Positions 304 to 27,649 of a DNA stretch of 33,459 bases are shown piece by piece; position 1 is the stretch's first letter, and each line of letters starts with the position of its first letter. The stretch lies in the IMG/VR virus record IMGVR_UViG_3300030101_004502, positions 1-33,459 of that record; one strand, given 5' to 3'. The stretch comes from a virus. The notes beneath the pieces were generated by a model. It saw nothing but the letters and a program-made list of their open reading frames with translations, ran no database searches and had not been told where the DNA came from. The translations under genes and the position numbers were made by a program.

Positions 304-595
304 GGGGAAAGCCGCGACGACCGTCTTTGATATGTCCTGCCGTAAGGGACTGAAGACCGCCGTCCGTTACCACGACACCAACATAGTAGAGTTTACACCT
401 TCCGAGGTTGTTCTGAACTCGGGTGGTTGGAGAACCGCTACCACGAAACGTAGAATGAATGAGGTCTCAGACCACTATGGTCTACGCTTTCACATTTATC
501 AGGAGGACTTCAAGTGGTGGGTTGTCCTCCACGACTCCCACTTAACCAGCAGAACTATGCCCTTCAGTGATGGCATGCAATTCCCAAGAGTATGA
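275..595 (+). CDS. Conserved-looking small phage protein, unknown function
   Basis: Encodes 106 residues from ATG at 275, inside the end of the previous gene. After a short N-terminal tail it has a compact mixed alpha/beta look: RYHDTNIVEFTPSEVVLNSG, then a WRTATTKRRMNEVSDHYGL helix, then FHIYQEDFKWWVVLHD. The pattern 'Y-x-T/N-x-I-V-x-F ... L-x-S-G-G-W-x-T-A-T-T-K-x-R-M-N' is one I associate with small hypothetical proteins of marine phages. No function is established for it, and the association is from memory. It has no catalytic motif and no membrane segment. Its stop overlaps the next start as ATGA. Confidence 0.65.
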   Translation: MKTMTPNPFKGKAATTVFDMSCRKGLKTAVRYHDTNIVEFTPSEVVLNSGGWRTATTKRRMNEVSDHYGLRFHIYQEDFKWWVVLHDSHLTSRTMPFSDGMQFPRV

Positions 596-897
596 AAACA
601 AAAATAAATACAGCAGTGACTGAAGTAAATGACGTTACTGTCAAACTACAATCGAAGCCTGACAACGAAGCCGTCAACGGGTGGGCCGTGATCGCCTACC
701 TACCCGACTTCTCTATCAGGTCTAAGTCGCTCCACAGTAGAGATAAGATGGGGCGTTTCCTATCAGCAATAGGCATCGCCGCAGGTTATCAGCTACATGA
801 GCTGAGGCCCGACATCGAAGACCCCTACATGACGCGAGCCGAGGAGGAGATAGATGAGCTTGAGAGAACCTGCGAAAGACTAATGCCCACGATATGA
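592..897 (+). CDS. Unknown small protein
   Basis: Encodes 101 residues. The ATG at 592 overlaps the previous TGA (ATGA), which favours translational coupling and decides the start. The N-terminal half looks like beta strands (VNDVTVKLQ, GWAVIAYLPDFSIRSKSL). The second half is helical and acidic and ends in EEEIDELERTCERLMPTI, so a small alpha/beta fold with a C-terminal charged helix is plausible. No motif, signal peptide or family is recognised. It is third of four plus-strand genes that run head-on into the giant minus-strand gene. Confidence 0.6.
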   Translation: MKTKINTAVTEVNDVTVKLQSKPDNEAVNGWAVIAYLPDFSIRSKSLHSRDKMGRFLSAIGIAAGYQLHELRPDIEDPYMTRAEEEIDELERTCERLMPTI

Positions 898-1127
898 TCC
901 ACATGGTTCGTGAGTTCCTACCAAACGGTATGCCTATCATGATAGACGGAGTGGTAGAGGGGGATAGAGTATCCCCCGATTCTGCCCGCATCTTCCCCCT
1001 CAGTGTGGGGGAGGATGCACCGTCTGTGATTGGCACACCCTTCTATTGTTTCAACGACCCAGATGATCTCGGCAAGAAGATAGCTGATCGTCTTACCAAA
1101 GTTTACAGGGACTCAGTTGATGACTAG
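894..1127 (+). CDS. Unknown small protein ending at the convergent junction
   Basis: Encodes 77 residues. The ATG at 894 overlaps the previous stop as ATGA; a second Met four codons in (903) is an alternative start. The sequence mixes short strands (MPIMIDGVVEGDRV) with a charged C-terminal helix (DDLGKKIADRLTKVYRDS). No family is recognised. The TAG stop (1125-1127) shares the palindrome CTAG with the TAG stop of the giant minus-strand gene, so the two convergent genes end on top of each other with no room for a terminator between them. Confidence 0.6.
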   Translation: MIHMVREFLPNGMPIMIDGVVEGDRVSPDSARIFPLSVGEDAPSVIGTPFYCFNDPDDLGKKIADRLTKVYRDSVDD

Positions 1128-4100
1128 GGGGTGTCCGATCCTTGACCCGTGTAGACGTCCTCGTATCTTTTCTCCTGAGAGATTCTCTGCACTGCCGCGT
1201 CATATACACGGGCTCGGTTGTCAGGCCAGCTTTCGTCAGGGTCGGCTTTCAATAGGTCTACATACCAAGCTTCTGTAGGAAGGTACCTTTCAGTCCTACT
1301 GTTCATCACTGCTTTCGCCCTGTTTTTCCCAACACCACCTTTTATAAGCGCATTGTATATCTGATCGTCTGTAAGACGGAGCGCAGGCTCCTCAAAGTTT
1401 CTTGATGTTTCAATCATAGAGATCAGTTTCTTATCAGTCTGAACCGTGTTCTCTATGACTCTTCTGGCTAGGTCTTCGATTTCTTCATCGGTGTAGGAAA
1501 CACTACCGTCCTTGAGTTTATCTTTGATAAGGGCTCTGACCGCCTCCCTGTCTCGGTTTATCTCGTACGCTACCGCCCGCATACCTTGAGATGGGTCTAC
1601 CTCCCGCACCTTCAGGGGCGACATAACGGAGGCGAGAGTTTGCTCTGATAATCTTTGAATATCTGTATCTTCGGCATCCCTTTGCTTGTAGTGTCTTCTT
1701 AGCTTCTCCAGATTAGAAGGTAGCAAGGTGTCTAAGATAACCTTATCTCTGATAGCCTTGAACTTCTCGTTGTTGTCCATCCCATCTTTGAAAAGGGGGC
1801 GACCGTCTGGGTCTCGCCCCGTGAAAGCCTTAGCTATTGTATCTGGTACTTGGCCTAAAGGTAACGCGTCAACGACGTTGAATTCTGGTTTACCCGTTGA
1901 ACGATTAAGAGTAAATGTCTGCCCCAAGAATCTCTCAAGGTACGTTACATACATTTTACCTGCGGCTTCCCTGAACCCCGCACCCACTTCACCTTCCTTC
2001 AATCCCGCGAGGAGTTTTATGAAAGCCTGTTGAGATCCATCAATCACGGGGGACATCCCGTTGATGTAGGTTATATCTACTGAATAAATCTTGTTTGGGT
2101 CAATCTCAGGGGGTAGTCCCGAGAACATGTCAATTATCTGGGGAACAGAGCTCGCCCCCATGTCAATGAGAGTGGAGCCTTTTATATAAACGTATGAGTT
2201 GTTCCGCGCATAAGAGGGCCTATTTGCTTCCAGCAATTCTTCTTCGTCTCTATCCAGTAAAACTTTAAGGGTGATAAACACAGAAGACGTGGCAGCAGCG
2301 GCAAAGGAACCATGTGTGAGCATCGCCGTCCGTCTCCTCCTTCTTCCATTTCTCTCAATGATAGGGTTTCTGTCTTTGATCTCTTGGTAAGAAGTACCTC
2401 TCAATACTTGATTGTACAGAATCCTAGCTTGGTCTACGAAAAAGCCAGAGAATGCATCAAATATGAAGGGATTAAATCTTCTAATGAGCCTCTGTATTCG
2501 TGTTGCTTCAGAGTAAGTAGGTGCAACAGACACGGCTTTCCTTGCTGCCAGTTGCTGCATCGCCTCTTCAGACATATCCAGATATCCTAAATCTAGGCCG
2601 TTGTCTTTTTCATACTGCTGGGCCTCTTTAAGAACACTCTTTTCTTTTTTGTATATAGCTACTTTGGTAGCTGTGTCTATCGCTTGAGCCATAGACGCCA
2701 CAAAATCATAAGATGCTTTGAACGGGGCTTGAGATATGTCTTTTATTTTACCCAGTCTAGATTTCTTTGATGTCTCAAAGACATCTCCCAAAGACTCAAA
2801 GAAAAGTTGACTCACATCCTTTGTTTTACCCGCCTTGAGTTGGTTGTTAATCGTGCTTATTTCTAAGGTTCTCTGATCAAGTCCGAGCATCCGGTATTCT
2901 GTCGCACTCAGCTCCTGCTCACTACCCGGTCTACGTTCGGGGGATATTTTAGATCCGCCTCTAAATGGTTGATCCAACCTAGACATGAATAAAATAAACA
3001 GCTCTCTCGCAACATCTTTCGGAGTTATTCCATTGGCTGACCCATATGAACTTATTGCGGTAATCATGTTACGAAGTGGGTATGCGGGGATGTTGAAAGC
3101 CGTCTTAGCTACGAGGAACAGACCATTAACAATCTCTATAGATCTGACCCCGAGTTTACCAGCCGCTGTCACATACCTTCCTTCTTTAGCGAGCTGGATT
3201 ACCGTACGCCCGTCGCCTATGGATGTACCCGCACTGGTTCCACTCAGCTTTTGATAATCTTTGAACGCTTCAAACGATTCGGTAGGGATAAACATGTCGT
3301 AAGTAAAATCAAATACATCCCGACTCTTCACAGTTTTAGCGCCATCCCCATCTGTATCTGTCCTGTTGTTGGAGTCTATGTACTCTTTCAACAACCTCCC
3401 AGTCCTTGCGTTAGTGTATTCGCTACCATCTAGATCTGCATCAATCGCTTCTTGTAGAGTAAACACAAAAGCGTTTTCAAAGTCTCCGTCTACCACACCA
3501 CCAATACGTTTTAACTGACTGAAGAAAGACGACTGCTCTGCCATTCTGGTCAAAGCAGTGAAGGTCTGCTCGAAAGCTACCAAACCTTTCTCTTCAAACG
3601 TACCATCCTCATTTAACTCTAGACCGTATTGACCCAGAAGATACCGAACCCTTGGGTCAATCTCTGACTTTCTTTTAAGAGCATCTGTATCAAGCTGTAG
3701 AAGCCGCTTAAGTTTCGGAGACTTATCACTCAATACCGCAGATACGTTCTGGCCCATTTCTCCGCGTGACTTCTCCTCGATAGCCTTGAGGAGAGTATTC
3801 ATTGTTGAAACAGTTTTGCTGCGCGAGTCTTTAACGGAGAACTCTGCTTTTATCCGAGCTTCCTCAAGCATTTCAGGCTTGGAAAGAGAGCTTATCCGTT
3901 TAGCCTCCGCTTCCTCTTCGGCGTCCTTGAATTCTACTTTCTGTCTTACTTTATCCCGCTGCCCCCGCATTTTAGCCAGTTCTTCTTTCGTCTCTGCCTC
4001 CACACGCAGCTCTTCAAAATAGCTCATGGCCGCGTCCCTACGTGCAGCGAACTTTCCTTTAGGTTTTTGAATCTCCTCTAAGTATGCGAAGTCATCGTAG

Positions 4101-7100
4101 CCTTTGTACTGACGGGTAAGATACACACCAGACTGCCTGTCTATTATCATCTTAAGTTTACCACCCCGAACTTCGCTCAACCCGTAGTTCTTAGAAACCA
4201 ACTGACTCAGAGCATCTAGGGAAGCTCGTATGGCCCCCATCTTGACCACGATCTCTGGGCCTAGCTCGGTATCATCGTTGATGGCTTTGTACGCAATCTT
4301 TTGTTTTTCCTTAAACGCTTTGACTTTTTCTACGCGGGCTTTTTCCAGAGGAATCGTGAACAGCACACGCCTCATACTAGCAAGAGCCTCTGGTTCAACA
4401 TCAGTGTCGGGGCGCAGACCGTCCTTTACTTCTTTCTTAATCTTCCGCGCCACGGATCTGTAAACTGAATTCAAATTTTCTTTGAACTCTGGTTCTACAT
4501 CTAGGCTGTCGGTTGTCCCCGCCGCTGTGTTTAGAGCTACCAATATGTCATCAGGGATTCCACCTTTGTACGCTCTCTTCAGTAGTTTAACAAGAACCGT
4601 AAAGTCAGAAAGCTTCTGTCCTTCCATTGCAGACACCCATAACTGAATCTTCTTTATGAGTTCTTGCACTCGCGGGTCCTGCATCCCAATCTTACCTCTT
4701 TGAACAAGCGCCTCGATACCTTTTAGTGTGCTGGCCCCCGAAAAACCCCCTCTTTCAAATTTTAGAACTGCTTCTGACTGGCCTACCTGCCGCTGCCTCA
4801 CAAGCTTTATAGCCTCCAACCGTTCTTCAGGTGTGGATTCAGGATCTGTGGCCTTTTTGAAAAGGTTCGACTGTCTTTCAAATGAATTTATCAACGTCTC
4901 CACCCCAGCTAAAGGATCTCCCTCGGGAGAGAACCCCGCGTCCTCGGGCCTGTTATTATCAAGAGCTTTCATAGCTCCAACAATACGTTGAACTACCTGT
5001 TGGTAGTTTGAGTTCCGCTCACCGCGAAGCATTGGCCCTAATCGAGCCGCGACTTTTGTGAGCTGTTTGTTTAACGCCGTGACGTAAGGGGAGCTCAAGC
5101 CTTCAATCGCAGCCGCGTCAACTGATTCAGTTGTGGTCCCTTTCACTATCCTCTGCACATCCATACGGATCATCTCAGATAACGCATGTCTCACCTCATC
5201 TGGGTCCCCGTCTCTAAGTGCTTGTAACTTGGGCTCGGCTTCTGCCTCTCGTTTCGCTCTTGTCTCTGGGTTAAGATAATTAAATCTATCACTTACCTGT
5301 AGGTAGTCTTTGTATGACTCTACAAGAGTATCGATCCCGACCTCTTCAAGTAACGCCTGCTTTTCTGCATCTGGTATCACCAGATTGTCCACTGTATGAA
5401 CAGTCTCCTCCAACACCGCTAACTCTATCTCATCTCTTACTCTCCTCGCTGCGAGTCGAAACCTCTCTGTAGCTTTAGCTCTACCCTCTTTACTCATGAG
5501 ATCAATGATCGGCCCACTTGTCGCAGACAGAACCGCGACGTCTCCTATGAGGTCTACTCGATCCTGCATAGCATCGAGGTCAAAGTTAATCTGAGTGATT
5601 CGTTTCCGTACCCCGTCCTCTACGATGGTGCTCTCCTCAGTGAAAGCAGGTTGGAAAGCTTTGTAGCCTAAACCCCTACTCCTCAAATCCTTGGCATTAG
5701 TAAACACGACACGCACCCCAGTGGGTACTTGTCTGCTTACCTCATCTTTGAGGATTTGTGTGAACATAACCTGATCCGCGAGATAAGCTTCCTCATCGCC
5801 GGACCTTCCTTCTTCCCGAGCTTTGATAAAGTCATCGAGGTATGCGTTGTACAAATCAAACTCAGGCCCGTCAACTAGACCCTCAGACATTCGTTTAGCT
5901 AAGTCCGCACTTAAACCCCGTGTCAGTCCAACGCGATCAACCTCTTGCTGGACTGCCTTAATGATACTGTCTCGGGTAGCCTCGAAAGATCGCGTAAGAT
6001 CTCTCGACCCTTTCATCTTCGCGAAGTTATAAATAGTCTCAACTACTTCGGTCTGTTGTTTCTCGACCCCTGTCTGTCTACCAAACATGGTCTTGATCGC
6101 ATCAATAATTCTGCGGAAAAGACTCCTGTCGCCGATGGCTATCCTACGGGTGGCGTCTTGAAAATCAGAAGCACTAAGCCAGCTAGTAAAGAATTCTTCA
6201 AACCCACGGGCGGCAGGGAGAATGACATCCGATCCAGCCGTTCCCTTCATTGCTGCTTGAGATGCGTCGAGTGTTGTTTCATCGGCTCCTGCGTAGAAGG
6301 GGAGGTCCCCACTAGCAGCTACAACTCCCGAAGGACCCACCATTCTAACTGTCTGTCTTCCTGTCTCGAATACATAATCGAGATTACGGTTCGCCATACC
6401 CCTCTTCTTAGAGTTCTCCCACTGCTTGCGTGCGCGATCATAGATCACCTGCATTTGTTTTTTGGCAGCTCTCTGACCAGACGTAAGTTCTGCGTCAGGG
6501 GTAGTGATGATCTTCTGGAACACGGCATGACCCACTTCGTGTAAGACAACAGAGATGACACCATCTCCATATCTCCCATTCACATTCACAGTAACTTCCC
6601 CCGTGGTAGGGTTAAAGCTACCGGCAAAGTGATTGCCAGCCTCAGTTGTAACTGGAGTTAAGTTTGTTCTTATGTAGTCCTCAAATTGAAGCAGAAGATC
6701 TGCGGCCATACGATGTTCTGGCCCAGCATTCTTGAGGACATTGATAAGAGATTCTACGTTTCTGTTTTCCAAACCAAGCTCTAGAATCTCTTGGACGTTC
6801 ATCTCTTTTATTCTCTCGACGAACTTCTTATCCAAGAAATTAGGAGCATTCTGTTCTTCTGATATCCGTCTGTAATCGTTGACTACCTTAATAACCTCAT
6901 CAGCATTCGTTTCAATACCAGCAGCTTCGACTATTTGAGAACCTCTCTCTGGGTTAAGATCTCCTCCCATCGCGTTGATCTTGAATAAGTATAGAATCGC
7001 GGCTGCCGCCCCCTGCTGCGGTGAAGGGGGATTAAACGCAGCAGCGCCTAATATACTAAGCGCAGTTTGCTGAGCCGTTCTCACCTCGTCTGGTACGCTT

Positions 7101-10100
7101 TTCGCCCAGTCCTCTTGCAGACTACGTAAACCCTCTTCAAATCTCTCGATCAGAACCTCGGGTTCCATGTCGTCAGCGGATCGGAGATCCTGTGCTGGTT
7201 CTACATTCATCACCCCCGCTTCTTGCAGAGCATTCGCAATCCTCCTGATGACTTCCGCTTGAGTACCTTTAAGGAAGTTAATACCTCTACTGCGAATGTC
7301 TGCTATTAACGGATCTACCTTGAGGTCGACGCTTTTTAACGTATGGACATTCGGATCATCAGGGGGCGGAGGCGCACCTTCATCGAAGTTGAAGTCGACA
7401 TCAACACTAGGGGGTTGAACTGGTGCCCCCGACTCAGCCCTTCTTTTTGGTACGTCTTGTGAATCAATCGACTTATCAAGTCTACTATCTATCTCGGCTT
7501 TGCCCGTACGTAAATCTGGAGTAGGTGTAGCAGAAGTTCTACGACCTTCTTCAGTCTGCACTCCCTCATTTCTGGAGAGACCTAATACATAATCGGCAAC
7601 CACATCAAAAATATTCTTATCTTTTTTGGCCGGTATCCCCCTCCCCAAAAAGTTGCTCAAAACAAACCCAAACAACTCATTGTCGTTTGCAAAGTCGGAC
7701 TGTGTTTTTCCTGTGGCTTTGGTAAGACCAGACAAGTCTTTCTCGCCTTTCTTAAAGAGACTCATGATAGCCTCTTCGTTCGTTTGCCCTGTCGACTTGT
7801 TCGCTACAGCCTGAAGTATGGCGACCTCAACCGCATAAAGCCTACCTTTAGCAAAGATATCTAGACCATACAGGTTCTTTAGTACATCTTTCTCGAACTT
7901 CCCCCGAACTCTATTACTTACTGGGGCTTGATCACCAGACTCGATGATAGGCTTTAGATAAGCTGAAATTCTATCTATTGTCTGAGCGATGGTTATAGAT
8001 TCTTCCACTCGATCAGCGACTGAGGTAGGGTCGCTTTTGTTAAGAGAGACATCTATCCGCACACCAGTGTCGATAAACTCTAGCAAAGTGTTGGTCCTTT
8101 CGTACGCCCTAGTTACTAGTTTGTCGGGGCTACTGGTTCTCTTTTGGGTGTAGTTTCCGTCTGCCCTGACCTCACTTCCACTGCCATCTCCGACAGGGTA
8201 GTAAACAGATCTTACTACGCCCTTGAGGGCTGCGGGCTCGTTGCCCTCGCGGTCGGCTCGAAAGGTTGGGTTGACCTTTTCCATTGGGAAATCTTTCGGG
8301 ATAAGAATCGAGTCAGTGTCTGCTACCTGATCGAGCGCCACCTTCATAGCCCGAGGGTCATTGTTAAACAGCACCACCTGTTCTCCAGTACCGCCAATGC
8401 CATTACCCCTATCGAAGATACCTCCTTTAGTATCTTCGATTGTGTAGATCTCTGTCTTACTGAATTGTAATGTGGTTTCCTCTAAGGTCATCCATTGTTC
8501 GTCATCAATGCTGCCCAAGATAGACTCTAAACGTGCCCTTACGTCGTCCCTTTTTGTCAGTCCTTTGCCTGCTTCATCAAACTGAACAAGAGGGTACCTC
8601 TCGTTCACACCTTTATACGTTCGGTCAGCCGCTGCTTTTTGGTCAGTAGAATTTGCTTTGATTCTTGAAGGGAACCCAAACACAGCGGTCCCCATCAGCC
8701 GTGTAGAATTCTTAGCACTCCCCCTGCGGAGAGCACCGGCTTCTATATCTTCCTCGACAAGAGTGTCGAGTTCATCCTTGGCCTTCTGCTTTGGATCAAT
8801 CCCCGAGATGATTCCTGTATCCTTTCTCGGGGACCCTGAGTCCTGATCCTTGGTTCCCGATTCACTACGCCGGATAGTCGGGGGTGGGATCTGTATAACT
8901 TCACCGTCTGAAGTTCGGCCCTCGCCAGCAGTAAGAATCTCTGGGTCCACATAATCCGTGGCTCCTTTAAAAAGAATCCTACCATCCGGTGTCACATCTT
9001 CCACTACATCTTCACCGTCTTCGTCTACCAGTGCATCTCCCGGCTTCAGTGTGAGGGCGACTCTTTTAGCCGCCTCATCCCGCGCTTTTATTGCGGCGCT
9101 AAACGCCGCGTCATCGCGGGTCCCATCATCTGCTCGGGTTCGCTCCCTAATAGAATTCGCAGGTTCCGAAGCTACTTGTATATCGCTGTCCGGCGCGGGC
9201 TCAGCGGGCGTAGGAGGTGTTTCTTCTATAAGCTCTGGCTCTGGCTCTGGCTCCAGTTCTTTCTTACGCCTATTCAGCGTCAGTAAATCTTCGAGAGTAT
9301 TTTTTAATCTCTCCAGAAGTTCCAGCTCCGCTACGCGGGTGCCTACATCAGTGGACCTACCCCCTACCGCTGCCTTATCTGCCATCCTCTGGCCCAGTTT
9401 GTCTATCAAACCCTGTGTGGGTTTATCCGTAAAATAAACCTCCCCCACTCCCCCCTGATATGCTTTCGGAAGACCCTGCTTTGCACGCTCTTTAAGAGCA
9501 TCTAGCCCATTTTTGATGCGGCTGATTGTTTGTTTCAGGACGGGCTCATCCCTTTCGATACGGGCCAAGTCCTCTGTCTCTTGTGGATCTCTCCGAACCT
9601 GAGACATCAATTCTTCTACCTCTATTGTGGCCTCCTCCTCTGTCATGCCCTTCCCCACAACGAACGCCCTGATAAGCTCTTTTTTCGCGTCAGGTGTGAC
9701 AACAGTAGCGCCCGTACCTGAAGTCTTTTTCGCGGCTTCCGCTGCTGCTTGAGCTGCGTTGCCTGCCTCGACTGCTGCGTTTTGCTGCTCCGGTGTGGAG
9801 TTTTCTACGTTAGCATCAGCTTGAGCCTCGGTGATGCCCGTCTTTATCTGATGAATAATATAATTTAGGATGTCCTTCTGGGCATCAGTAAGGACCATGT
9901 TAGCCGAGTACTGCTCAATCACAGAAATAGCTGACAGTCTTTCAGACAGCTCAAACTTATTGGGATCTTTAATAACTGCCACCAGCTCTTCAGCAATCGG
10001 AAGCAGGCCAATTTGATTCAACAGGTTGAGAATTCTAGCTTCCCCTTCGAACTCAGACGTCGCTTCTTCCGCATCCTGTTCGTTTGATTTCTTTTGGGCT

Positions 10101-13100
10101 TCTTCAGAGGATGGTGATTTAGATAAAGGAGATTTTGGTGTCCCGAATTCAGCAGCTAATTTAGCAGTAATGTCTCTCTGTTCTTTACTCCCCTTCTTTT
10201 GTTCTCCGAATTGTTTTATGTCCGAGGCTAAGGCTTCTGATTTCTGCTCCTCCCTACTAGCGTCTAGCTGCTCCTGAGCTTCGTCTGCATCGGCCTGTGG
10301 ATCTGCCTGTGAATCTGCCTTCGTGTCGGTGTCAGTGTCAGTTTCTACCTTTGGAGCAGGACTCGCTTCATCCATCGCTGCGAGTATCTCTTCTACTGTG
10401 TTCGCAGTCTCTGTGCTTCCGGTAGCTCTTAGCCTCGCCACCGTTCGTTTCCTAATATCTTTAGCTAGTTCAAGACGAACTCTCTGCTCGTCGCTCTCTT
10501 TCATCGTCCCCCTGTTTGCGCGGGATTCAATAACCCCTCTAGCGCTACCACCTAGAGCCCCGAGACCCGCCCCATACGCGGCACCAAGAAGACCCTCTTT
10601 TGCACGGTCTAAGAAGGGACGGTCCCAATCATCTGCGGAGGTATCCCTCGCCCCCAGTGAGCGAGCGAACGTGTTGAGTAAAGCATCTGTTCCTTCTTGA
10701 AGGGATTCCGCAACCACACCTCCACCTGTTCTCTTTAGAACGGTGTAGTTCATTTTAGAAAAACCCTCTTTTAAGATTTTATTAGTTATGTCTTTTGTAG
10801 CTTCCCCTAAAGAAGCGTAAGGTTTGCCCCTTAGTTTCTCTAGTATCGCTCTGAGCCCGCGAGTAGTCCCCCCTCTAGCAGCCCATGTCTCCAGACCACC
10901 TAGCTTATCGCCTAACCCCACTACTCTACCAAGACTGTGAAGACCAATCACGGTACTTGCTGTTATTAGTCCTGCTAAGAAAGCTGTCCCCGTCGCCCTA
11001 TCTTCAATTTCTTCGGCACTAAGAGGCTTGCCATCAGCGTCAGTAGCCCCCTTTAAAAGCATGTGCATGTCGCCATACGTAGCTCCCGCTGACCTAAGAA
11101 AAGCTGGAGCTGCCATTGCGGGAAACATCACTCTTTTAGAGCGCATTCCTTTTGCGGCGGCTTCAAAAAGTTTTACTGCCGAGGCTGCCTCAGCGGTCTT
11201 TGCCACCCCCTCGCGTATGAGAGGCTGGGGCTTAACTTTGATAAGCTTTTTCTTTATTGCCTTGTCTACGAAAGCCTCCGCAGATTCTTCACCGGCTTCT
11301 TTCAGAAGTGTTCTTAGTCCCCCACCTGTCAGACCCGCAGCGTAAGCTTTCGCGGTGCTTCGGATACCAGCCTTAGACCCAGCCGCACTGATGTACGCAG
11401 CTGCCCCCGCAGGACTCGTCGTTGCTGCCAACACACCAGTGGCGAAAAGGTCTACAGCGAGCGGGGCAATAAACTGCACCCCGTCGTCCACGTAAGTCGC
11501 TTGCTGACCAAACATACGACCAATAGATTTATTGGCCTCTCTTGTCATTGCCGTTCCTTTTAAGATGTCACTTCCGGTGCGCTCTAAGAAGGTAGGATCA
11601 TCTCCCGGCGTAATGCGATTTACTGCTTTCCCTCCTACCAGAGAGATCGCCCCCACCAAATCTCCCAAGCCTTGTAGAATAGACTGACCGATTCTATTGT
11701 AGAAATTTTTCCCGTTCTCTGTATCCAACCACTCCCCTAAAATTTCTCCTCTTGATTTATCAGTCTTGTAGCGTTCGTCTCCTAGTTCCGTTGTACTAAT
11801 GTGGTCCAGCCAAGAATTTCTTATGTCCGCAGTAGAGTCATAAATGCTGTCGACCATATTATCATACATACGATCCAGCGTCTTCTTTCTCGTTGCGAGG
11901 AGACGATCTTTTTGTGTTCTGCCCTCGGAGTCTTCCTTCCCGTCTAGATTTACAAAAATTCTATCCCCGTCTTCGTCCACATCTTGGAATACGAGCTCTT
12001 TGCTCTCGACAAGATTATCGAAGTCCGCTTTGGCTACTAGCAACTGGGGGTGGATATAAGTCTGCCCAGTTACTGGGTCTTTATATACATTCTGTTTAAC
12101 CCTTTCCGCAGACTGCTCTGCCCTAGTTTTTTTGCCGGAGAATAATATGCTTCTCTTTTCGTGAAAATTAAAGACCCCATTTTCGATTGCAACGCCAGAT
12201 GCAACAGACCTTGCGGCATTTAAAATCTCAGCGTCACTTACGTGCCCCCGCAGTGGATAAAGCTTTCTAAAGTCTTCTAAGAAATTCTTATAGTTATCTG
12301 AAACAAACTCATTGTATTGGCCCTTAACGGGTTTGGTCTTCCCAGTAGGAACACCATCCTCGGTAAGAAACTCATGTAGTTGCCCATCAGTAGGTTTAAG
12401 ATGAGAGAACCTAAGCCTTCTTATTTGTGACGTTAGTGTGTCGTACAATAGACTCTCTCGTGGGGCAGACCTAATCAGTCTCTCTGCTTCCTCCGTGTTC
12501 TGCCTCTCAATAGAAAGCTTCCGAGGGTTTTGTAAAAGATCAGTAACTTGTCCTCTAAGCGTCGGGTTTATCGCTCCTGCTCGAATAGACCTATCGACCT
12601 CTGCATTTATGTCTTCTTTGGGGATGTCTCTTGTAACCAATGCGCCATTTACAATGGCGACATTCAAGATTCCGTCAGACAACTTTGTTCTCAAACGGTC
12701 TTCTTGAGAACTCTCCACAAGAAGTCTTACGGGATTTTCAAATTTTTCTAAGTATTCAAGTTCCGGCTCAGTAAGAACTTCCTGCTCACCCGCAGCATTC
12801 GGTTTAAGTGTTTCTATCCTAGCTTGTTTTTCTCTCAGCTCGTTAAAATAAAGATGACCAAACTCCATGCTATCAAGAGCATTGAATAGCTCTCCCGCAC
12901 TATCCCCATCTTCGTATGTTGACGAGGCGTTTTTACGTAGCTCAAGATAGTTCTCTAGTACCTCAGCCTCTTGTTCGGCGTACGGGACTTCAGAAACTCT
13001 ACGGATGGCTTCGTCTAAATCCTCTTGAGAGGTGAACCCTTTAACTAGAAACCTATTTGCAGATTCAACCGCGCCCTTTTTTTGCAGGGGGCTCTGAATG

Positions 13101-13252
13101 GTATTGATAAACCCATCTAAATAATTTTTGTAAGCGAATCGCAGAGCGAAATCGTCTTCAAGATCTATGGGTTTGTTCCTGTGGTCGACAGGATTATTAT
13201 TCTTCCACTCCCTAAATGGGACCGCCGCTTTAAGCTCATTCACCGATGACAT
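1124..13252 (-). CDS. Giant polyvalent virion protein, 4042 residues, with zincin metallopeptidase motif and LPD38-like C-terminus
   Basis: One uninterrupted 12.1 kb frame. Residues 1-500 are charged and helical. Hydrophobic Gly/Ala-rich stretches lie near 520-540, 592-620, 752-776 and 884-907. Acidic and repetitive linkers follow (a TDTDTDT run near 975; EPEPEPE near 1335). HEVGH at 2238-2242 follows a strand (GEVTVNVNG) and is matched by EE at 2352-2353 in GFEEFFTSW, the layout of a gluzincin-type zinc peptidase. EETVH at 2615-2619 is a second related-looking site. Long coiled helices fill 2700-3300. The C-terminal part (FNPFIFDAFSGFFVDQA near 3590-3610, then a hydrophobic helix near 3641-3664) resembles the LPD38 region of phage large polyvalent proteins. 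Such proteins are thought to be packaged and injected with DNA, so a role in ejection and in the newly infected cell is inferred. It follows terL and two helical proteins. I saw no RNA polymerase motif. Confidence 0.9.
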   Translation of the reverse strand: MSSVNELKAAVPFREWKNNNPVDHRNKPIDLEDDFALRFAYKNYLDGFINTIQSPLQKKGAVESANRFLVKGFTSQEDLDEAIRRVSEVPYAEQEAEVLENYLELRKNASSTYEDGDSAGELFNALDSMEFGHLYFNELREKQARIETLKPNAAGEQEVLTEPELEYLEKFENPVRLLVESSQEDRLRTKLSDGILNVAIVNGALVTRDIPKEDINAEVDRSIRAGAINPTLRGQVTDLLQNPRKLSIERQNTEEAERLIRSAPRESLLYDTLTSQIRRLRFSHLKPTDGQLHEFLTEDGVPTGKTKPVKGQYNEFVSDNYKNFLEDFRKLYPLRGHVSDAEILNAARSVASGVAIENGVFNFHEKRSILFSGKKTRAEQSAERVKQNVYKDPVTGQTYIHPQLLVAKADFDNLVESKELVFQDVDEDGDRIFVNLDGKEDSEGRTQKDRLLATRKKTLDRMYDNMVDSIYDSTADIRNSWLDHISTTELGDERYKTDKSRGEILGEWLDTENGKNFYNRIGQSILQGLGDLVGAISLVGGKAVNRITPGDDPTFLERTGSDILKGTAMTREANKSIGRMFGQQATYVDDGVQFIAPLAVDLFATGVLAATTSPAGAAAYISAAGSKAGIRSTAKAYAAGLTGGGLRTLLKEAGEESAEAFVDKAIKKKLIKVKPQPLIREGVAKTAEAASAVKLFEAAAKGMRSKRVMFPAMAAPAFLRSAGATYGDMHMLLKGATDADGKPLSAEEIEDRATGTAFLAGLITASTVIGLHSLGRVVGLGDKLGGLETWAARGGTTRGLRAILEKLRGKPYASLGEATKDITNKILKEGFSKMNYTVLKRTGGGVVAESLQEGTDALLNTFARSLGARDTSADDWDRPFLDRAKEGLLGAAYGAGLGALGGSARGVIESRANRGTMKESDEQRVRLELAKDIRKRTVARLRATGSTETANTVEEILAAMDEASPAPKVETDTDTDTKADSQADPQADADEAQEQLDASREEQKSEALASDIKQFGEQKKGSKEQRDITAKLAAEFGTPKSPLSKSPSSEEAQKKSNEQDAEEATSEFEGEARILNLLNQIGLLPIAEELVAVIKDPNKFELSERLSAISVIEQYSANMVLTDAQKDILNYIIHQIKTGITEAQADANVENSTPEQQNAAVEAGNAAQAAAEAAKKTSGTGATVVTPDAKKELIRAFVVGKGMTEEEATIEVEELMSQVRRDPQETEDLARIERDEPVLKQTISRIKNGLDALKERAKQGLPKAYQGGVGEVYFTDKPTQGLIDKLGQRMADKAAVGGRSTDVGTRVAELELLERLKNTLEDLLTLNRRKKELEPEPEPELIEETPPTPAEPAPDSDIQVASEPANSIRERTRADDGTRDDAAFSAAIKARDEAAKRVALTLKPGDALVDEDGEDVVEDVTPDGRILFKGATDYVDPEILTAGEGRTSDGEVIQIPPPTIRRSESGTKDQDSGSPRKDTGIISGIDPKQKAKDELDTLVEEDIEAGALRRGSAKNSTRLMGTAVFGFPSRIKANSTDQKAAADRTYKGVNERYPLVQFDEAGKGLTKRDDVRARLESILGSIDDEQWMTLEETTLQFSKTEIYTIEDTKGGIFDRGNGIGGTGEQVVLFNNDPRAMKVALDQVADTDSILIPKDFPMEKVNPTFRADREGNEPAALKGVVRSVYYPVGDGSGSEVRADGNYTQKRTSSPDKLVTRAYERTNTLLEFIDTGVRIDVSLNKSDPTSVADRVEESITIAQTIDRISAYLKPIIESGDQAPVSNRVRGKFEKDVLKNLYGLDIFAKGRLYAVEVAILQAVANKSTGQTNEEAIMSLFKKGEKDLSGLTKATGKTQSDFANDNELFGFVLSNFLGRGIPAKKDKNIFDVVADYVLGLSRNEGVQTEEGRRTSATPTPDLRTGKAEIDSRLDKSIDSQDVPKRRAESGAPVQPPSVDVDFNFDEGAPPPPDDPNVHTLKSVDLKVDPLIADIRSRGINFLKGTQAEVIRRIANALQEAGVMNVEPAQDLRSADDMEPEVLIERFEEGLRSLQEDWAKSVPDEVRTAQQTALSILGAAAFNPPSPQQGAAAAILYLFKINAMGGDLNPERGSQIVEAAGIETNADEVIKVVNDYRRISEEQNAPNFLDKKFVERIKEMNVQEILELGLENRNVESLINVLKNAGPEHRMAADLLLQFEDYIRTNLTPVTTEAGNHFAGSFNPTTGEVTVNVNGRYGDGVISVVLHEVGHAVFQKIITTPDAELTSGQRAAKKQMQVIYDRARKQWENSKKRGMANRNLDYVFETGRQTVRMVGPSGVVAASGDLPFYAGADETTLDASQAAMKGTAGSDVILPAARGFEEFFTSWLSASDFQDATRRIAIGDRSLFRRIIDAIKTMFGRQTGVEKQQTEVVETIYNFAKMKGSRDLTRSFEATRDSIIKAVQQEVDRVGLTRGLSADLAKRMSEGLVDGPEFDLYNAYLDDFIKAREEGRSGDEEAYLADQVMFTQILKDEVSRQVPTGVRVVFTNAKDLRSRGLGYKAFQPAFTEESTIVEDGVRKRITQINFDLDAMQDRVDLIGDVAVLSATSGPIIDLMSKEGRAKATERFRLAARRVRDEIELAVLEETVHTVDNLVIPDAEKQALLEEVGIDTLVESYKDYLQVSDRFNYLNPETRAKREAEAEPKLQALRDGDPDEVRHALSEMIRMDVQRIVKGTTTESVDAAAIEGLSSPYVTALNKQLTKVAARLGPMLRGERNSNYQQVVQRIVGAMKALDNNRPEDAGFSPEGDPLAGVETLINSFERQSNLFKKATDPESTPEERLEAIKLVRQRQVGQSEAVLKFERGGFSGASTLKGIEALVQRGKIGMQDPRVQELIKKIQLWVSAMEGQKLSDFTVLVKLLKRAYKGGIPDDILVALNTAAGTTDSLDVEPEFKENLNSVYRSVARKIKKEVKDGLRPDTDVEPEALASMRRVLFTIPLEKARVEKVKAFKEKQKIAYKAINDDTELGPEIVVKMGAIRASLDALSQLVSKNYGLSEVRGGKLKMIIDRQSGVYLTRQYKGYDDFAYLEEIQKPKGKFAARRDAAMSYFEELRVEAETKEELAKMRGQRDKVRQKVEFKDAEEEAEAKRISSLSKPEMLEEARIKAEFSVKDSRSKTVSTMNTLLKAIEEKSRGEMGQNVSAVLSDKSPKLKRLLQLDTDALKRKSEIDPRVRYLLGQYGLELNEDGTFEEKGLVAFEQTFTALTRMAEQSSFFSQLKRIGGVVDGDFENAFVFTLQEAIDADLDGSEYTNARTGRLLKEYIDSNNRTDTDGDGAKTVKSRDVFDFTYDMFIPTESFEAFKDYQKLSGTSAGTSIGDGRTVIQLAKEGRYVTAAGKLGVRSIEIVNGLFLVAKTAFNIPAYPLRNMITAISSYGSANGITPKDVARELFILFMSRLDQPFRGGSKISPERRPGSEQELSATEYRMLGLDQRTLEISTINNQLKAGKTKDVSQLFFESLGDVFETSKKSRLGKIKDISQAPFKASYDFVASMAQAIDTATKVAIYKKEKSVLKEAQQYEKDNGLDLGYLDMSEEAMQQLAARKAVSVAPTYSEATRIQRLIRRFNPFIFDAFSGFFVDQARILYNQVLRGTSYQEIKDRNPIIERNGRRRRRTAMLTHGSFAAAATSSVFITLKVLLDRDEEELLEANRPSYARNNSYVYIKGSTLIDMGASSVPQIIDMFSGLPPEIDPNKIYSVDITYINGMSPVIDGSQQAFIKLLAGLKEGEVGAGFREAAGKMYVTYLERFLGQTFTLNRSTGKPEFNVVDALPLGQVPDTIAKAFTGRDPDGRPLFKDGMDNNEKFKAIRDKVILDTLLPSNLEKLRRHYKQRDAEDTDIQRLSEQTLASVMSPLKVREVDPSQGMRAVAYEINRDREAVRALIKDKLKDGSVSYTDEEIEDLARRVIENTVQTDKKLISMIETSRNFEEPALRLTDDQIYNALIKGGVGKNRAKAVMNSRTERYLPTEAWYVDLLKADPDESWPDNRARVYDAAVQRISQEKRYEDVYTGQGSDTP
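8411..8440. repeat. Perfect 11-bp inverted repeat inside the giant gene
   Basis: ATCGAAGATAC (8411-8421) and GTATCTTCGAT (8430-8440) are exact reverse complements around an 8-base loop. In the mRNA of the giant gene the loop reads UAAAGGAG and runs into GGU of the 3' arm, so it displays a near-perfect Shine-Dalgarno core. The encoded peptide there is IEDTKGGIFD. It may be coincidental, a translation-pausing element or a pairing trap. Confidence 0.7.
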
Positions 13253-13274: not shown

Positions 13275-14483
13275 TTATTCTCCTGTTTCTCCTGTAAGAC
13301 CTTCGACGCCGCCTTTCCCTTGTTCTATTTTTATTTGATCGGGATTAAGATCTAGATCTATGTCAACCGCTTCCCCTAAACGAGAAGCTCGTTCACTTAG
13401 ACTTTCTTCGAGGTCAAGCCGCTGCTCAAATATTTTTGCAATAAGGGATGCACCAAAATCATCGAGACTTTGTTTCGTTACATCGAAATCTTTGCCTTCT
13501 GGATTTTGTAACTGTTTGATGATTTTTTTGGTGTTAAATTTAAAATTGCCATCATCGTCCGTAAACAGTTTGTTTTTGTCGACAGCAGGAATCAAGTCGC
13601 TTAGCTCGTCTGATGATGGCCTATATAATTTTTTGTACCGTGTTAATAAACCAACCAAATAAGTTGGGGACAAACCTTCAACAACAACCTCGTCCGCAAA
13701 AGAAGTGTCATCCTCCTTGCGTTTCTTTTTGAAACTCACAGGCTTTTCAGCATCTTCTACTAGTTTAGCAACTTGTGATCGTATAGATGAGATACTCTTT
13801 ATTTCAGATTTAACTCTTTTATCCGCTAGATTAAGCGCGGAGTCCCTAGTCGAAACATCAAAGGGACGGTTGTCTGGAAAGACGAGCAGCTCTTGAAGGT
13901 CTTTAGAAAGATCATCTACAAAGTTTCCGTCTTCATCTTGTTTGATGATACTTAAAAAATTATCGAACTTAATGTTCGTGGCGTCCTGTTTAGTTCGATC
14001 AGCAATGAGATCTTCCAATACTTTTTGTTGGTTACTTATAACCTGATCTCTATTCTCCCGCGCCTGCGCCCCCATTATTTCGTAACCAACAAGCATCTTA
14101 GGATCATTTGCCATTCTACGTGTCTGAGCCATGTAAGCTTTTGCAGCCGCCTCTCCACCCTCACTAAACATAGCGCGTAGCTCAGACTCCCTACCCCGCA
14201 GCGAAGCCAAGTGCCCCGACACGTTTTTACTAGCCGCAGCAGCAGCCTCTCCTGTTTGAGTAGCTTTCCTGCTGTCGGCTATTGCATCCCTAAGTTTTAA
14301 TTGAGTAGCGAGAAGGTTGGTCCTGCGCGTAGCCATCTCGTCGTACGTCGCAGCAATCTTGTTCAATCGGTCGGCCCGCTCAAGAGAGCGGTCGGCTTCG
14401 CGCTGCCTTCCCTTTGAGGAAAGGTTAGTGCGAAACTTAAAAGTATCTCTAAGAGCCGCTGTTCCTAAATCTTCTTCAGCCAT
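13275..14483 (-). CDS. Charged coiled-coil protein, probable internal virion protein
   Basis: Encodes 402 residues. ATG at 14483 lies one base after the stop of the upstream gene. The protein is almost wholly helical and charged: residues 20-130 are a heptad-like, Ala/Arg/Glu-rich region (SLERADRLNKIAATYDEMATRR, then an AAAAASKN stretch). A second basic/acidic section around 235-260 contains SFKKKRKEDD, and the tail is Asp/Gly-rich (DIDLDLNPDQIKIEQGKGG). There is no enzyme motif, signal peptide or membrane helix. It is transcribed just ahead of the giant gene with only 22 bases between, and phage internal core or ejection proteins commonly form such sets. Function is inferred from position and composition only; a scaffold-like role is another possibility. 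Confidence 0.7.
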   Translation of the reverse strand: MAEEDLGTAALRDTFKFRTNLSSKGRQREADRSLERADRLNKIAATYDEMATRRTNLLATQLKLRDAIADSRKATQTGEAAAAASKNVSGHLASLRGRESELRAMFSEGGEAAAKAYMAQTRRMANDPKMLVGYEIMGAQARENRDQVISNQQKVLEDLIADRTKQDATNIKFDNFLSIIKQDEDGNFVDDLSKDLQELLVFPDNRPFDVSTRDSALNLADKRVKSEIKSISSIRSQVAKLVEDAEKPVSFKKKRKEDDTSFADEVVVEGLSPTYLVGLLTRYKKLYRPSSDELSDLIPAVDKNKLFTDDDGNFKFNTKKIIKQLQNPEGKDFDVTKQSLDDFGASLIAKIFEQRLDLEESLSERASRLGEAVDIDLDLNPDQIKIEQGKGGVEGLTGETGE

Positions 14484-14484
14484 C

Positions 14485-15129
14485 TTAACGGTTCTTAAAT
14501 TTTGCCTGCTTTCTTTCTTGCTTGAGCTTCTTTATCGCTTGTTTCAGATCTTTGCCCGTCTTCTCTGCATCACCCACATTTTTCTCCGCTGCGCCTTCTG
14601 CTTTGTCTGCGTCCTTCTTTTTCTGTATCTCCCTCGCACGGTCTACTTGAGCGTCGTCTTGCGTTCTGCGCCCCCTATCGGCGCGTGCGTCAGGGTCTTG
14701 GCGAGCGGCTGCGGCTGTTTGGCGATCTCCTGCTGCTTCTGCGGCTCTTATATCTCGTCGAGCTTGTGCGCCCGGAGTATCAAGAGATCGTGTGTATGGA
14801 TTTCCGAACTCATCTCTAAGGCCAGTGACAACTAGACTTGTTCTCATGGGTTCTCTTCCAGAGACAGCATCTGGTTGCCGTGCTCTCTTTATAGCCTCGG
14901 CTCTATCCTGACGGCGTGCCGCGTTTTCTCGCCTCAACCTCTCTACCGGAGTACCTAATTTACTGATGAATCTATCTAGACTTTTATTGTCTATCCCTAG
15001 AGCGCCTGCTCTATCACGCATATCTTCAGACAAACCACCCATAATCTGAGAAGCGTCTAAAGACCCTTTGTCATACATACCTCTTAAGATATCAGCAAAT
15101 TCTTTTCGAGGGTCTTTTAACTCGGCCAT
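14485..15129 (-). CDS. Ala/Arg/Asp-rich helical protein, unknown (virion-associated?)
   Basis: Encodes 214 residues from ATG at 15129. The N-terminal 70 residues look like a small helical domain (FADILRGMYDKGSLDASQIMGG). After residue about 75 the sequence becomes low-complexity, highly charged and probably disordered (RRDIRAAEAAGDRQTAAAAR, then EIQKKKDADKAEGAAEKN), ending in a basic tail LKQERKQAKFKNR. It sits between terL (29-base gap upstream) and the 402-residue helical protein. No family is recognised. The composition would suit a scaffold or an internal virion component, but nothing in the sequence proves either. Confidence 0.65.
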   Translation of the reverse strand: MAELKDPRKEFADILRGMYDKGSLDASQIMGGLSEDMRDRAGALGIDNKSLDRFISKLGTPVERLRRENAARRQDRAEAIKRARQPDAVSGREPMRTSLVVTGLRDEFGNPYTRSLDTPGAQARRDIRAAEAAGDRQTAAAARQDPDARADRGRRTQDDAQVDRAREIQKKKDADKAEGAAEKNVGDAEKTGKDLKQAIKKLKQERKQAKFKNR

Positions 15130-15158: not shown

Positions 15159-16943
15159 TCAATCCAGCAGTACGGCGTCGGGGTTGTTCAACGCACCGCT
15201 TAGCTGTTTGATAGTCACGGGTGGGCGGACTGGCCCCGAACTCGACTGAGGAGGGTCAACTGCTACGAGCCCCAACCGCTGGCGGGCGCAGTCCAAAGCT
15301 AGAAATGCTGCGTCAGCTAAGTCAGGGCTCTTTCCAAAACGCCCCTTAAATTCAGGCTTAGGCTCGATCTTTACTTTGAGCGACCCGCTCTTCACCAGCT
15401 CATAGTTCCGCGCTGTTATTTCCTGCGCCAGATCTGCCTGAACTCCAAACATCTGCTTGGTCCGCATCAATTCTTTTCCCACGAACCACATCTCAGAGAC
15501 CCTGTTTGTGTACATTTCAGCGCCTGTCAGCTTGCTGCTAAGACTCACTCGCTTGTCGCTGGGCTTGCCCCCGAAGCTGACCCGAAGAAAGGTACCCGCC
15601 CATTCCCCCGCCAAAACATCACAGAAAGGAGCCCCCGCTCCGGTGGCGTCGACAGCCACATTCTCTACGGATATGTTTCGCTTCTGGCATTGCTCCTTAA
15701 TTTGCCTGACAATCTGATAAGTTCGGGGCACCGCTTTATTTGTAGCGTCATCGTTCAGGTGTATGGCTTCCCCAAACTCTATTACGTATTGACCGGATTT
15801 ATCGTAGCCAACTGAGGCGGTGTACAAAATCGTGCGGTCGCCCCCATTTGTGAATGCGGGGTCACACCCCGCAATATTAGTGGGGGTGCCCGCCCATTCC
15901 ACTTTGTTCATAGCCCCCGAAGTAGTCAGCTCTGATTCGCTGTAGATGCCGGTAGTCTCATCCGAGTCAAAGAATACGGCGCGGACCATTCGCATGTAAC
16001 CCCGAGACTCGACTCCCAGTAAGGCTTTGTCCTCATCAAGCTTTTCCTGTGTGGGTAGCCACGGGTATAGCGACTCTCCCGCCACAATGTTGGGGGACCT
16101 CTCTCCATCTAAGCGTAGATAATGTCCTCCCCACTTCGTCTCCCAGTTATCGTAAGTATTTGTATCAACAGAGTCCCACCCATCTTTGGGTTGGGACCAG
16201 ATGCCAAAAGCGTCGAACCTGCTGTTCGGGTTCGACATGCCGATGAGTTGGAATTCAGGGTTCTTCGACAGGTTCGTCAATCCTGCTTGAAGAATAGCTT
16301 CCGAAAGCTCAGACAGCTCATCGCCGATTAAGATCACCCTCTTCTGTTTAATACCAATAAACTTACCGACAGCTTCTCTTGTCTTAGATTTCTCTGCTGA
16401 TATGAGGCTGAGACCCGCTCGTTCGATAAGAGTCTGGTTCTCGTCAACATATGCTGCGTTCCCTATCGAGTCCCTGATTTTTATTGGAGCCCCTTCAATG
16501 ACGGTAAGCAAAGACATAACAGAACCCCATATACGTTTCCTCGCTTCCCTTAATGTAGTAGAGGTCATCAACACCAGAGTATCTTTGGGCTGTGATAACC
16601 AATTAACTATTCCCCAAGCGGCCATAGTGTGTGACTTCCCCGAAGAAGCTGACCCACCAATAGCTAGGTATTTGTGTTCTATGGCAGATCTAATCATCTC
16701 CTCTGCCCAAGGATGTTTTACCATCAGCTTTTCCGGCAGATCTTCGTGATTCCACAGCTCATCACACACCCTCCAAAAGTAATACTCTTTTGCCTTGGCA
16801 TGTGTGTGGTGTGCGAATCCGTAGAGTAAAGCAGTTATTAAACTCGTAGGTGGTATCAACAGACCACCAACATCCATGCGTTTACTTTTCGGGTCGATGG
16901 TCGGTTCTAGTATCTGCTTGTAGGTCTTCTTCTTTGAAGCCAT
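15159..16943 (-). CDS. terL: Terminase large subunit (packaging ATPase and nuclease)
   Basis: Encodes 594 residues from ATG at 16943. This is the motor that pumps phage DNA into the prohead and cuts the concatemer. The ATPase has Walker A GSASSGKS at 97-104 and Walker B VILIGDE at 203-209 (Asp208, catalytic Glu209), followed by the coupling-like segment GMSNPNSRFD near 235-244. The RNase H-like nuclease shows Asp361 (IAGCDPAF), Asp432 (VAVDATG) and Asp541/Asp544 (SPDLADAAF), the expected acidic set. Length is normal for the family. Its small-subunit partner lies on the opposite strand only 30 bases away, an uncommon arrangement, since terS and terL are usually co-oriented. A candidate promoter for terL lies within the start of terS. 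Confidence 0.95.
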   Translation of the reverse strand: MASKKKTYKQILEPTIDPKSKRMDVGGLLIPPTSLITALLYGFAHHTHAKAKEYYFWRVCDELWNHEDLPEKLMVKHPWAEEMIRSAIEHKYLAIGGSASSGKSHTMAAWGIVNWLSQPKDTLVLMTSTTLREARKRIWGSVMSLLTVIEGAPIKIRDSIGNAAYVDENQTLIERAGLSLISAEKSKTREAVGKFIGIKQKRVILIGDELSELSEAILQAGLTNLSKNPEFQLIGMSNPNSRFDAFGIWSQPKDGWDSVDTNTYDNWETKWGGHYLRLDGERSPNIVAGESLYPWLPTQEKLDEDKALLGVESRGYMRMVRAVFFDSDETTGIYSESELTTSGAMNKVEWAGTPTNIAGCDPAFTNGGDRTILYTASVGYDKSGQYVIEFGEAIHLNDDATNKAVPRTYQIVRQIKEQCQKRNISVENVAVDATGAGAPFCDVLAGEWAGTFLRVSFGGKPSDKRVSLSSKLTGAEMYTNRVSEMWFVGKELMRTKQMFGVQADLAQEITARNYELVKSGSLKVKIEPKPEFKGRFGKSPDLADAAFLALDCARQRLGLVAVDPPQSSSGPVRPPVTIKQLSGALNNPDAVLLD

Positions 16944-27374: not shown

Positions 27375-27649
27375 GCCATTCTTTTCTTTTGCTTGTTCTT
27401 TCTTTTCTTCTCTACAAAACCATGAGCGCGTCTTTCGGCATCAGTGTACTTGGCGGTTTGTTTGCCCCTAGAATGAGCTTTACGTTTCCGCGCATTCGCG
27501 GCAGCTTTCTCTGAAGAGGATAAACTATCTCTTACACGCTTTGGCCCATACCGCCCTCTTTGACTGCGGGGTTTCTTTTTGTCCGACTCGTTGTAGAAGT
27601 CCCAATCTTCATCGGTCCACTTCTTAAGGGACTTCTGCGAAGCTTTCAT
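27371..27649 (-). CDS. Lys/Arg-rich small protein, DUF5872-like
   Basis: Encodes 92 residues. The start SLKKWTDEDWDFYNESD followed by long basic runs (KKKPRSQRGRYGPKRVRDSL; EKKRKNKQKKRMA at the C-terminus) resembles, from memory, the DUF5872 type of small phage protein, though the match is uncertain. It has no enzyme motif. The charge suggests DNA or RNA binding. The stop overlaps the next start (ATGA), so it is probably translated with the DUF5754-like gene downstream. Its own ATG at 27649 lies three bases after the preceding stop and has no Shine-Dalgarno. Confidence 0.65.
   Translation of the reverse strand: MKASQKSLKKWTDEDWDFYNESDKKKPRSQRGRYGPKRVRDSLSSSEKAAANARKRKAHSRGKQTAKYTDAERRAHGFVEKKRKNKQKKRMA

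What the first reader, a model, noticed from the sequence alone, without database searches (positions are those of the whole stretch)
1124..13252. A 4042-residue polyvalent phage protein taking up over a third of the window
A single uninterrupted gene encodes charged helical domains, several hydrophobic Gly/Ala-rich segments, acidic repeat linkers, a HEVGH...EE zinc-peptidase module (2238-2242 with 2352-2353) and an LPD38-like C-terminus. Such proteins are proposed to be packaged and injected with the genome. Most of the length (about 900-2150 and 2700-3550) has no recognisable domain, so new effector domains could hide there.
Basis: partly seen in the sequence, partly recalled or inferred. 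Interest (0 to 1): 0.7.

Follow-up and report, generated by a model that had tools for sequence, protein, structure and literature searches.

The report
Giant phage ejection protein, swappable modules
The 4042-residue gene is real and is the hallmark protein of a large group of uncultured, apparently marine phages: by homology it is packed in the virus particle and pushed into the bacterium ahead of the DNA, and its relatives carry exchangeable enzyme modules in one fixed slot that is empty in this copy.

Summary
One uninterrupted 4042-codon ORF runs on the minus strand (13252→1124), under purifying selection (dN/dS 0.19-0.28; zincin 0.09). All 48 inspected relatives whose DNA reaches far enough share the layout TerL, ~200-aa gene, ~350-400-aa gene, giant ORF; 22 full-length relatives encode 3250-5394 aa, unbroken. 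The zincin is supported: HExxH plus a downstream Glu are conserved in most members, a family profile matches solved podophage ejection proteins (9sfn E 9.8e-6; phiM1 gp48 E 1.3e-4), and the predicted fold aligns with the N4 vRNAP zincin (Z 7.4). The C-terminal domain is homologous to Cellulophaga phage phi18:3 gp123 (E 1.4e-32), annotated as a virion protein from MS/MS. It is most likely the largest ejection protein of a short-tailed phage. The polyvalent reading rests on relatives: GNAT, methyltransferase, ART-PolyVal and extra zincin modules occupy a 171-2238-aa slot, and two protein pairs 97-98% identical differ by one ~250-270-aa cassette there. The window's slot is empty (181 aa). LPD38 was not found; residues 2895-3550, suggested as hidden effectors, are conserved core. 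New variant of a known kind; host, catalysis and injection untested.

The parts
1124..13252 (-). Giant ejection/polyvalent protein, 4042 aa
10553..11692 (-). Residues 521-900: conserved N-terminal hydrophobic Gly/Ala-rich domain, possible membrane segments
   Evidence: block found in all 23 proteins, E 1e-103 to 1e-136
8867..9190 (-). Residues 1355-1462: 108-aa insert absent from the 97%-identical L002; variable slot 1 (L003 has a HEMKH zincin-like insert here, L112 another insert in the same slot region)
8090..8620 (-). Residues 1545-1721: conserved block with F-x-NDP motif, function unknown
6068..6820 (-). Residues 2145-2395: zincin metallopeptidase domain homologous to that of podophage ejection proteins
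6527..6541 (-). HEVGH, residues 2238-2242
6194..6196 (-). E2353, predicted third zinc ligand, invariant in alignment A6
5111..5443 (-). Residues 2604-2714: conserved domain with invariant EExxH (E2615, E2616, H2619)
   Evidence: relation to zincin inconclusive
4571..5110 (-). Residues 2715-2894: main cassette slot, empty here (181 aa between blocks); up to 2238 aa in relatives
1127..4570 (-). Residues 2895-4042: conserved, mostly helical C-terminal domain homologous to phi18:3 gp123
2255..2311 (-). Residues 3648-3666: second conserved hydrophobic zone, seen in 22 of 23 proteins
13275..14483 (-). 402-aa gene, candidate second ejection protein (by position and size only)
14485..15129 (-). 214-aa gene, candidate smallest ejection protein (by position and size only)
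15159..16943 (-). Terminase large subunit, conserved marker used to find the clade

Best explanation
The protein is the largest of a three-protein ejection set of a short-tailed (podovirus-like) phage lineage with no cultured member found in the collection searched. Inferred working: copies are packed inside the capsid above the portal, leave ahead of the DNA through the tail, and the N- and C-terminal hydrophobic zones help to form or anchor the inner-membrane end of the channel, as for T7 gp16 and N4 vRNAP. The conserved framework (N-domain, F-x-NDP block, zincin, EExxH domain, C-domain) is the virion/ejection part. Between the EExxH and C-domains, and less often between the N-domain and the NDP block, lineages insert or lose enzyme modules (GNAT, methyltransferase, ART, further zincins) that would be delivered to the cytoplasm before any phage gene is expressed. 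This window carries a near-minimal version. Shown: ORF, conservation, zincin homology, homology to MS/MS-annotated virion proteins, module turnover. Inferred: packaging and injection in this phage, membrane role, peptidase activity, and that the modules act on host targets.
For: Zincin profile hits ejection proteins 9sfn and 8vb2; fold match to N4 vRNAP residues 2135-2355, Z 7.4, and 8vb2, Z 6.5, and to phage internal/core and structural proteins in BFVD. C-domain homology to phi18:3 gp123, E 1.4e-32, with none of 200 shuffles passing; gp123 and the syntenic gp120 and gp121 are annotated from MS/MS. A Pachyviridae member, Gundel, is podoviral with a 22.7-nm tail (PMC8776804). Same gene order after TerL in all relatives that reach far enough. 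Conserved hydrophobic zones. Modules in the slot and cassette presence/absence between 97-98% identical proteins.
Against: No proteomics of this phage. The window protein alone matches phi18:3 gp123 only weakly (blastp E 0.019); the link runs through the family profile. The zincin model has low mean confidence (pLDDT 57.8), and unrelated zincins such as anthrax lethal factor match at equal or higher Z, so the fold match alone shows only a zincin. The upstream 214- and 402-aa proteins show no detectable homology to phi18:3 gp120 and gp121. Portal and capsid proteins of the clade match no family searched, so podovirus morphology is inferred.
Confidence: 0.78

Rival explanations
1. Tape-measure protein of a long-tailed phage that has picked up a peptidase and other domains.
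For: Very large, helical, with Gly/Ala-rich hydrophobic segments; some weak structural matches to annotated tape-measure proteins (E 0.013 to 0.3).
Against: About 4000-5400 residues would imply an implausibly long tail, and length would vary with cassettes between near-identical phages. The best matches are internal/ejection and phi18:3-type proteins, and a relative of phi18:3 has a 22.7-nm tail.
Confidence: 0.05
2. N4-type virion RNA polymerase whose polymerase domain has diverged beyond recognition: same order of membrane N-domain, polymerase, zincin and large helical C-domain.
For: Zincin at nearly the same coordinates as in N4 (about 2145-2395 here; C1 is 2124-2375 in PMC12633501), hydrophobic N-domain, about 1100-residue helical C-domain.
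Against: No polymerase match for the N-half profile against the PDB, which holds N4 polymerase structures, none in Pfam for any member; almost no conserved Asp, Lys or Tyr in residues 960-2140; that region shrinks to about 750 residues in some relatives.
Confidence: 0.07
3. A polyprotein made during infection and not packaged, acting only in the cell that makes it.
For: Nothing in this record shows packaging directly; cytoplasmic enzyme domains occur in relatives.
Against: Gene placement next to TerL, homology to MS/MS-annotated virion proteins and ejection proteins.
Confidence: 0.08
4. Sub-question within the best explanation: the zincin is an active protease that cuts the protein into separate effectors after entry, rather than a structural module.
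For: HExxH and the downstream Glu conserved in most members, lowest dN/dS of any part between window and L003; proposed for polyvalent proteins generally (PMC5512222).
Against: Some relatives have lost the first His (LEExxHA in L084, L085, L091/L109, L096) and L102 has no HExxH, yet all keep the domain; N4 vRNAP is packaged uncut.
Confidence: 0.45

Closest known systems
Cellulophaga phage phi18:3 gp123 (Pachyviridae)
   Same: Homologous C-terminal domain (profile E 1.4e-32), last of a small-medium-large gene set, annotated as virion protein from MS/MS.
   Different: 1935 aa; no match to the N-domain, NDP, zincin or EExxH profiles; upstream proteins not detectably homologous.
N4 virion RNA polymerase gp50 (Schitoviridae)
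   Same: Giant ejected protein; putative membrane N-domain, zincin C1 with matching fold (Z 7.4), large helical C-domain.
   Different: No polymerase found here; no demonstrated relation of the C-domains; variable cassette slots.
phiM1 gp48 tetrameric ejection protein (8vb2) and internal virion protein 9sfn
   Same: Zincin-region homology by profile (E 1.3e-4 and 9.8e-6); gp48 is resolved inside the capsid (PMC11440229).
   Different: About 1300 aa; the rest of the protein is not detectably related.
Phage-type polyvalent proteins (Iyer et al. 2017, PMC5512222)
   Same: Zincin plus, in relatives, GNAT, methyltransferase and ART-PolyVal in one polypeptide.
   Different: 3250-5394 aa with a fixed framework and a defined cassette slot; LPD38 not found; the window copy has only the zincin recognised.
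crAss-like phage cargo proteins (PMC10172136)
   Same: Very large proteins stored in capsid and ejected; zincin model matches some crAss-like proteins in BFVD.
   Different: RNA-polymerase cargo; different genome organisation.

Membership tests
Zincin metallopeptidase | HExxH on a helix with a downstream Glu ligand | tested here: met
   H2238, E2239, H2242 and E2353; E2239, H2242, E2353 invariant and first His over 90% in alignment A6
Zincin metallopeptidase | Three-stranded sheet, N-terminal helix, two active-site helices | tested here: met
   Model order helices, three strands, HExxH helix, later Glu helix; block pLDDT mostly 66-91 over the core but lower around the Glu helix; zincins head the fold list
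Zincin metallopeptidase | Zinc-dependent proteolysis | not testable with these tools
   No assay; His lost in a few relatives
Podophage ejection (internal virion) proteins | Sequence homology to a known ejection or internal virion protein | tested here: met
Podophage ejection (internal virion) proteins | Present in the virion | not testable with these tools
   Homolog gp123 of phi18:3 annotated from MS/MS; this phage not cultured
Podophage ejection (internal virion) proteins | Three adjacent ejection genes of increasing size | tested here: inconclusive
   Position and size match; homology of the two smaller ones not detected
Polyvalent proteins | Several unrelated enzymatic domains in one polypeptide | tested here: inconclusive
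   Met in relative L101 (GNAT, methyltransferase, two DUF7178 stretches, ART-PolyVal); window protein has no Pfam hit
LPD38 (PF18857) | Match to the Pfam model | tested here: inconclusive
   No match at E 0.1 in 32 records, but the model rang in no control genome either; not among Pfam hits of any member half; BFVD matches to unspecified LPD proteins
N4-type virion RNA polymerase | Single-subunit RNA polymerase domain | tested here: inconclusive
   No sequence match and no catalytic-type conserved residues; no structure of 960-2140 was predicted
N4-type virion RNA polymerase | Zincin-type C1 domain | tested here: met
   Z 7.4, 166 residues, rmsd 4.0

The most novel reading that the evidence does not exclude
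A conserved virion-ejection framework that serves as a delivery vehicle with a fixed docking slot in which interchangeable effector cassettes are gained and lost between near-identical phages, in a manner like the toxin-tip exchange of polymorphic toxins, so that the phage's first-minute anti-host repertoire is swapped without touching the ejection machine.
Probability: 0.5. Interest if true: 0.75.

Novelty: new variant of a known kind. Interest (0 to 1): 0.6.

Why it matters
It gives one protein family, found downstream of TerL in every relative whose DNA reaches far enough in an abundant uncultured phage group (449 contigs hit with TerL), a testable role, and links two literatures: polyvalent proteins and cryo-EM ejection proteins. 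The cassette slot offers a natural experiment: phages whose giant proteins are 97-98% identical but differ by one module can be compared for defence escape, and the slot is a place to look for new injected enzymes.

Tried and rejected
Direct searches of the window protein in Pfam, PHROGs and PDB gave nothing usable beyond phrog_4529 'minor head protein and DNA pilot' (E 0.012; 0.0025 for the segment). TerL, portal and window giant-protein pieces have no match in 50,697 phage records. LPD38 search: no match. I first took the L003 slot-2 insert (GIYFTRS) for an ART from memory; neither Pfam nor comparison with the ART-bearing region of L101 supports it, so it is dropped as a claim. The EExxH domain as a second, degenerate zincin: profile comparison inconclusive. 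C-domain against the PDB: only generic helical matches. Host from MAG contigs: Blastopirellula, Opitutae and Altibacter labels conflict and look like binning noise. Foldseek of the whole zincin-EExxH model against the PDB was dominated by long helices. Homology of the two upstream genes to phi18:3 gp120/gp121: none above shuffled controls.

Full report
THE OBSERVATION. The ORF is exactly where stated, 1124-13252, but on the minus strand. It begins with ATG, encodes 4042 residues and has no internal stop. HEVGH is at 2238-2242 and EE at 2352-2353. The window is a 33.5-kb linear IMG/VR fragment. Two long relatives exist, G002 (56.4 kb) and G003 (61.6 kb, whose two ends overlap by about 100 bases inside this very gene), so the real genome is probably near 61.5 kb and the gene about a fifth of it. 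The gene is under purifying selection: dN/dS 0.28 against L002 and 0.19 against L003; the zincin is among the most constrained parts (0.09 in both comparisons).

THE FAMILY. The terminase found 449 matching stretches in IMG/VR contigs, of which the best 80 were kept. I inspected 52 of these loci; 4 end too early, and in the other 48 the order is TerL, sometimes an extra gene, a ~200-300-aa gene, a ~310-480-aa gene, then a giant open frame. Twenty full-length genes were fetched, plus two from the first search; they encode 3250-5394 aa without a break. I therefore treat the giant as a hallmark of this clade. TerL of the window is 99% identical to that of G002 and G003, while the giant is about 70% and the 214-aa protein 48-61%, a steep gradient across neighbouring genes. 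The clade has no relative among 50,697 deposited phage records for TerL, portal or window giant-protein pieces; the DNA polymerase, in contrast, is widely matched.

ANATOMY. Six blocks found by profile occur in the same order in all 23 proteins: N-domain (window 560-962), F-x-NDP block (1545-1721), zincin (2145-2395), EExxH domain (2604-2714), and two C-terminal blocks (2895-3100, 3370-3619). Hydrophobic segments lie in the N-domain in all 23 proteins and in the C-domain in 22, comparable to the two putative membrane zones of T7 gp16 described in PMC8954989 and the membrane N-domain of N4 vRNAP.

THE ZINCIN. A profile of residues 2053-2785 from 19 members finds two PDB proteins, both ejection or internal virion proteins: 9sfn_G 'internal virion protein' (E 9.8e-6, aligned across LHEAVHA and the N-x-x-E helix) and 8vb2_A, phiM1 gp48 tetrameric ejection protein (E 1.3e-4). 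The AlphaFold model has low overall confidence (57.8), but much of the core helix-sheet-HExxH region is at 66-91. Structural alignment puts zincins at the top: anthrax lethal factor (Z 8.4, shared fold only), N4 vRNAP 2135-2355 (Z 7.4) and phiM1 gp48 (Z 6.5). The N4 stretch is the C1 domain that its authors describe as carrying HExxH (PMC12633501). In BFVD the hits include phi14:2 structural protein, Ab05 internal core protein (1337 aa), BB8 internal protein D and crAss-like proteins. The domain is found in the giants of 57 loci (some overlapping) and the window; several relatives have LEExxHA instead of HExxH and L102 lacks HExxH, so catalysis may be dispensable in some lineages.

THE C-DOMAIN. 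It is mostly helical (pLDDT 65). By tblastn from relative L101 it matches virion structural proteins of Cellulophaga phages phi18:3, phi13:2 and phi19:3; by family profile phi18:3 gp123 scores E 1.4e-32 (database size set to 100,000) and none of 200 shuffled copies passes the filters. A profile of the window's own subclade alone still aligns with gp123 (hhalign probability 82, E 9.9e-6), while the single window sequence gives only blastp E 0.019. The predicted fold agrees (phi19:3, E 5e-17, TM 0.54 of target). In phi18:3 the genes gp120 (227 aa), gp121 (499 aa) and gp123 (1935 aa) are annotated as virion proteins from MS/MS. Pachyviridae phage Gundel has podoviral shape with a 22.7-nm tail (PMC8776804), which argues against a tape-measure role. 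LPD38 gave no match, but that search had no positive control, and the C-domain model matches several phage proteins whose UniProt name is 'large polyvalent protein associated domain-containing', without saying which domain.

CASSETTES. The distance between the EExxH domain and the C-domain ranges from 171 to 2238 residues. The window has 181, essentially empty. In relatives this slot holds GNAT (L100, L101), a methyltransferase-like domain, DUF7178 and ART-PolyVal (L101), DUF7178 (L099, L103) and second zincin-like copies (L100, L101). L113 and L114 are 98.2% identical but L114 has about 273 extra residues in the slot; L115 and L116 are 97.3% identical but L116 has about 251 extra; the two inserts are the same cassette at 75-80% identity. 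A second slot lies between the N-domain and the NDP block: the window has a 108-residue insert (1355-1462) missing from the 97% identical L002, and L003 has a HEMKH zincin-like insert there (weak SprT-like match, E 0.026). These are recent, in-frame, whole-module changes. All are assembled metagenomes, so single-molecule confirmation is desirable.

MECHANISM. Most likely the protein is packaged and ejected ahead of DNA, its framework forming part of the trans-envelope channel or its inner-membrane end, and any cassettes delivered into the cytoplasm at once. Packaging is shown for homologs, not for this phage; membrane insertion, peptidase activity and effector function are inferred. A polymerase is not detected between the N-domain and the zincin, which separates it from N4 vRNAP on present evidence.

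NOVELTY. Proteins of this kind are known in principle (Iyer et al. 2017; N4, T7, phiM1, crAss001). New here are the clade, the size range, the absence of a detectable polymerase, the link of zincin and C-domain to cryo-EM and MS/MS-annotated virion proteins, and the natural cassette polymorphism. My paper searches did not return a description of this clade, but the library is partial.

Noticed in passing
window 14485-15129 and 13275-14483 versus 15159-16943: Steep divergence gradient between adjacent late genes: TerL 99%, 402-aa protein 78-83%, 214-aa protein 48-61%, giant about 70% identical to G002/G003, suggesting fast evolution of ejection genes or recombination.
   Followed up: partly
L030, L032, L035, L036, L040, L041 downstream of TerL: Many relatives carry an extra 450-712-aa gene between TerL and the smaller late genes that the window lacks.
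   Followed up: no
window 28112-28411: Small 99-aa metalloprotease-like protein (HEMIHA; phrog_1233, phrog_87) overlapping the endolysin gene 28408-29037.
   Followed up: no
window 27081-28115: Cluster of four small, very Lys-rich basic proteins (65-97 aa) between the small metalloprotease gene and a 178-aa gene.
   Followed up: no
window 5111-5443 (residues 2604-2714): Conserved EExxH domain with invariant E, E, H after predicted short strands; resembles the LEExxHA form of the zincin seen in L091, L096, L084, L085, but profile comparison was inconclusive.
   Followed up: partly
L114 protein residues 2607-2704 and other cassettes: The C-terminal tail of the L114/L116 cassette (ANPNQIKS...IPLSQRFD) recurs within other slot regions of L099, L101, L104, L113 and elsewhere in L114, perhaps a shared module ending.
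   Followed up: partly
L117, L119, L118/L120: TerL of the clade occurs on MAG contigs labelled Blastopirellula, Altibacter and Opitutae; the conflict suggests binning noise, host unknown.
   Followed up: no
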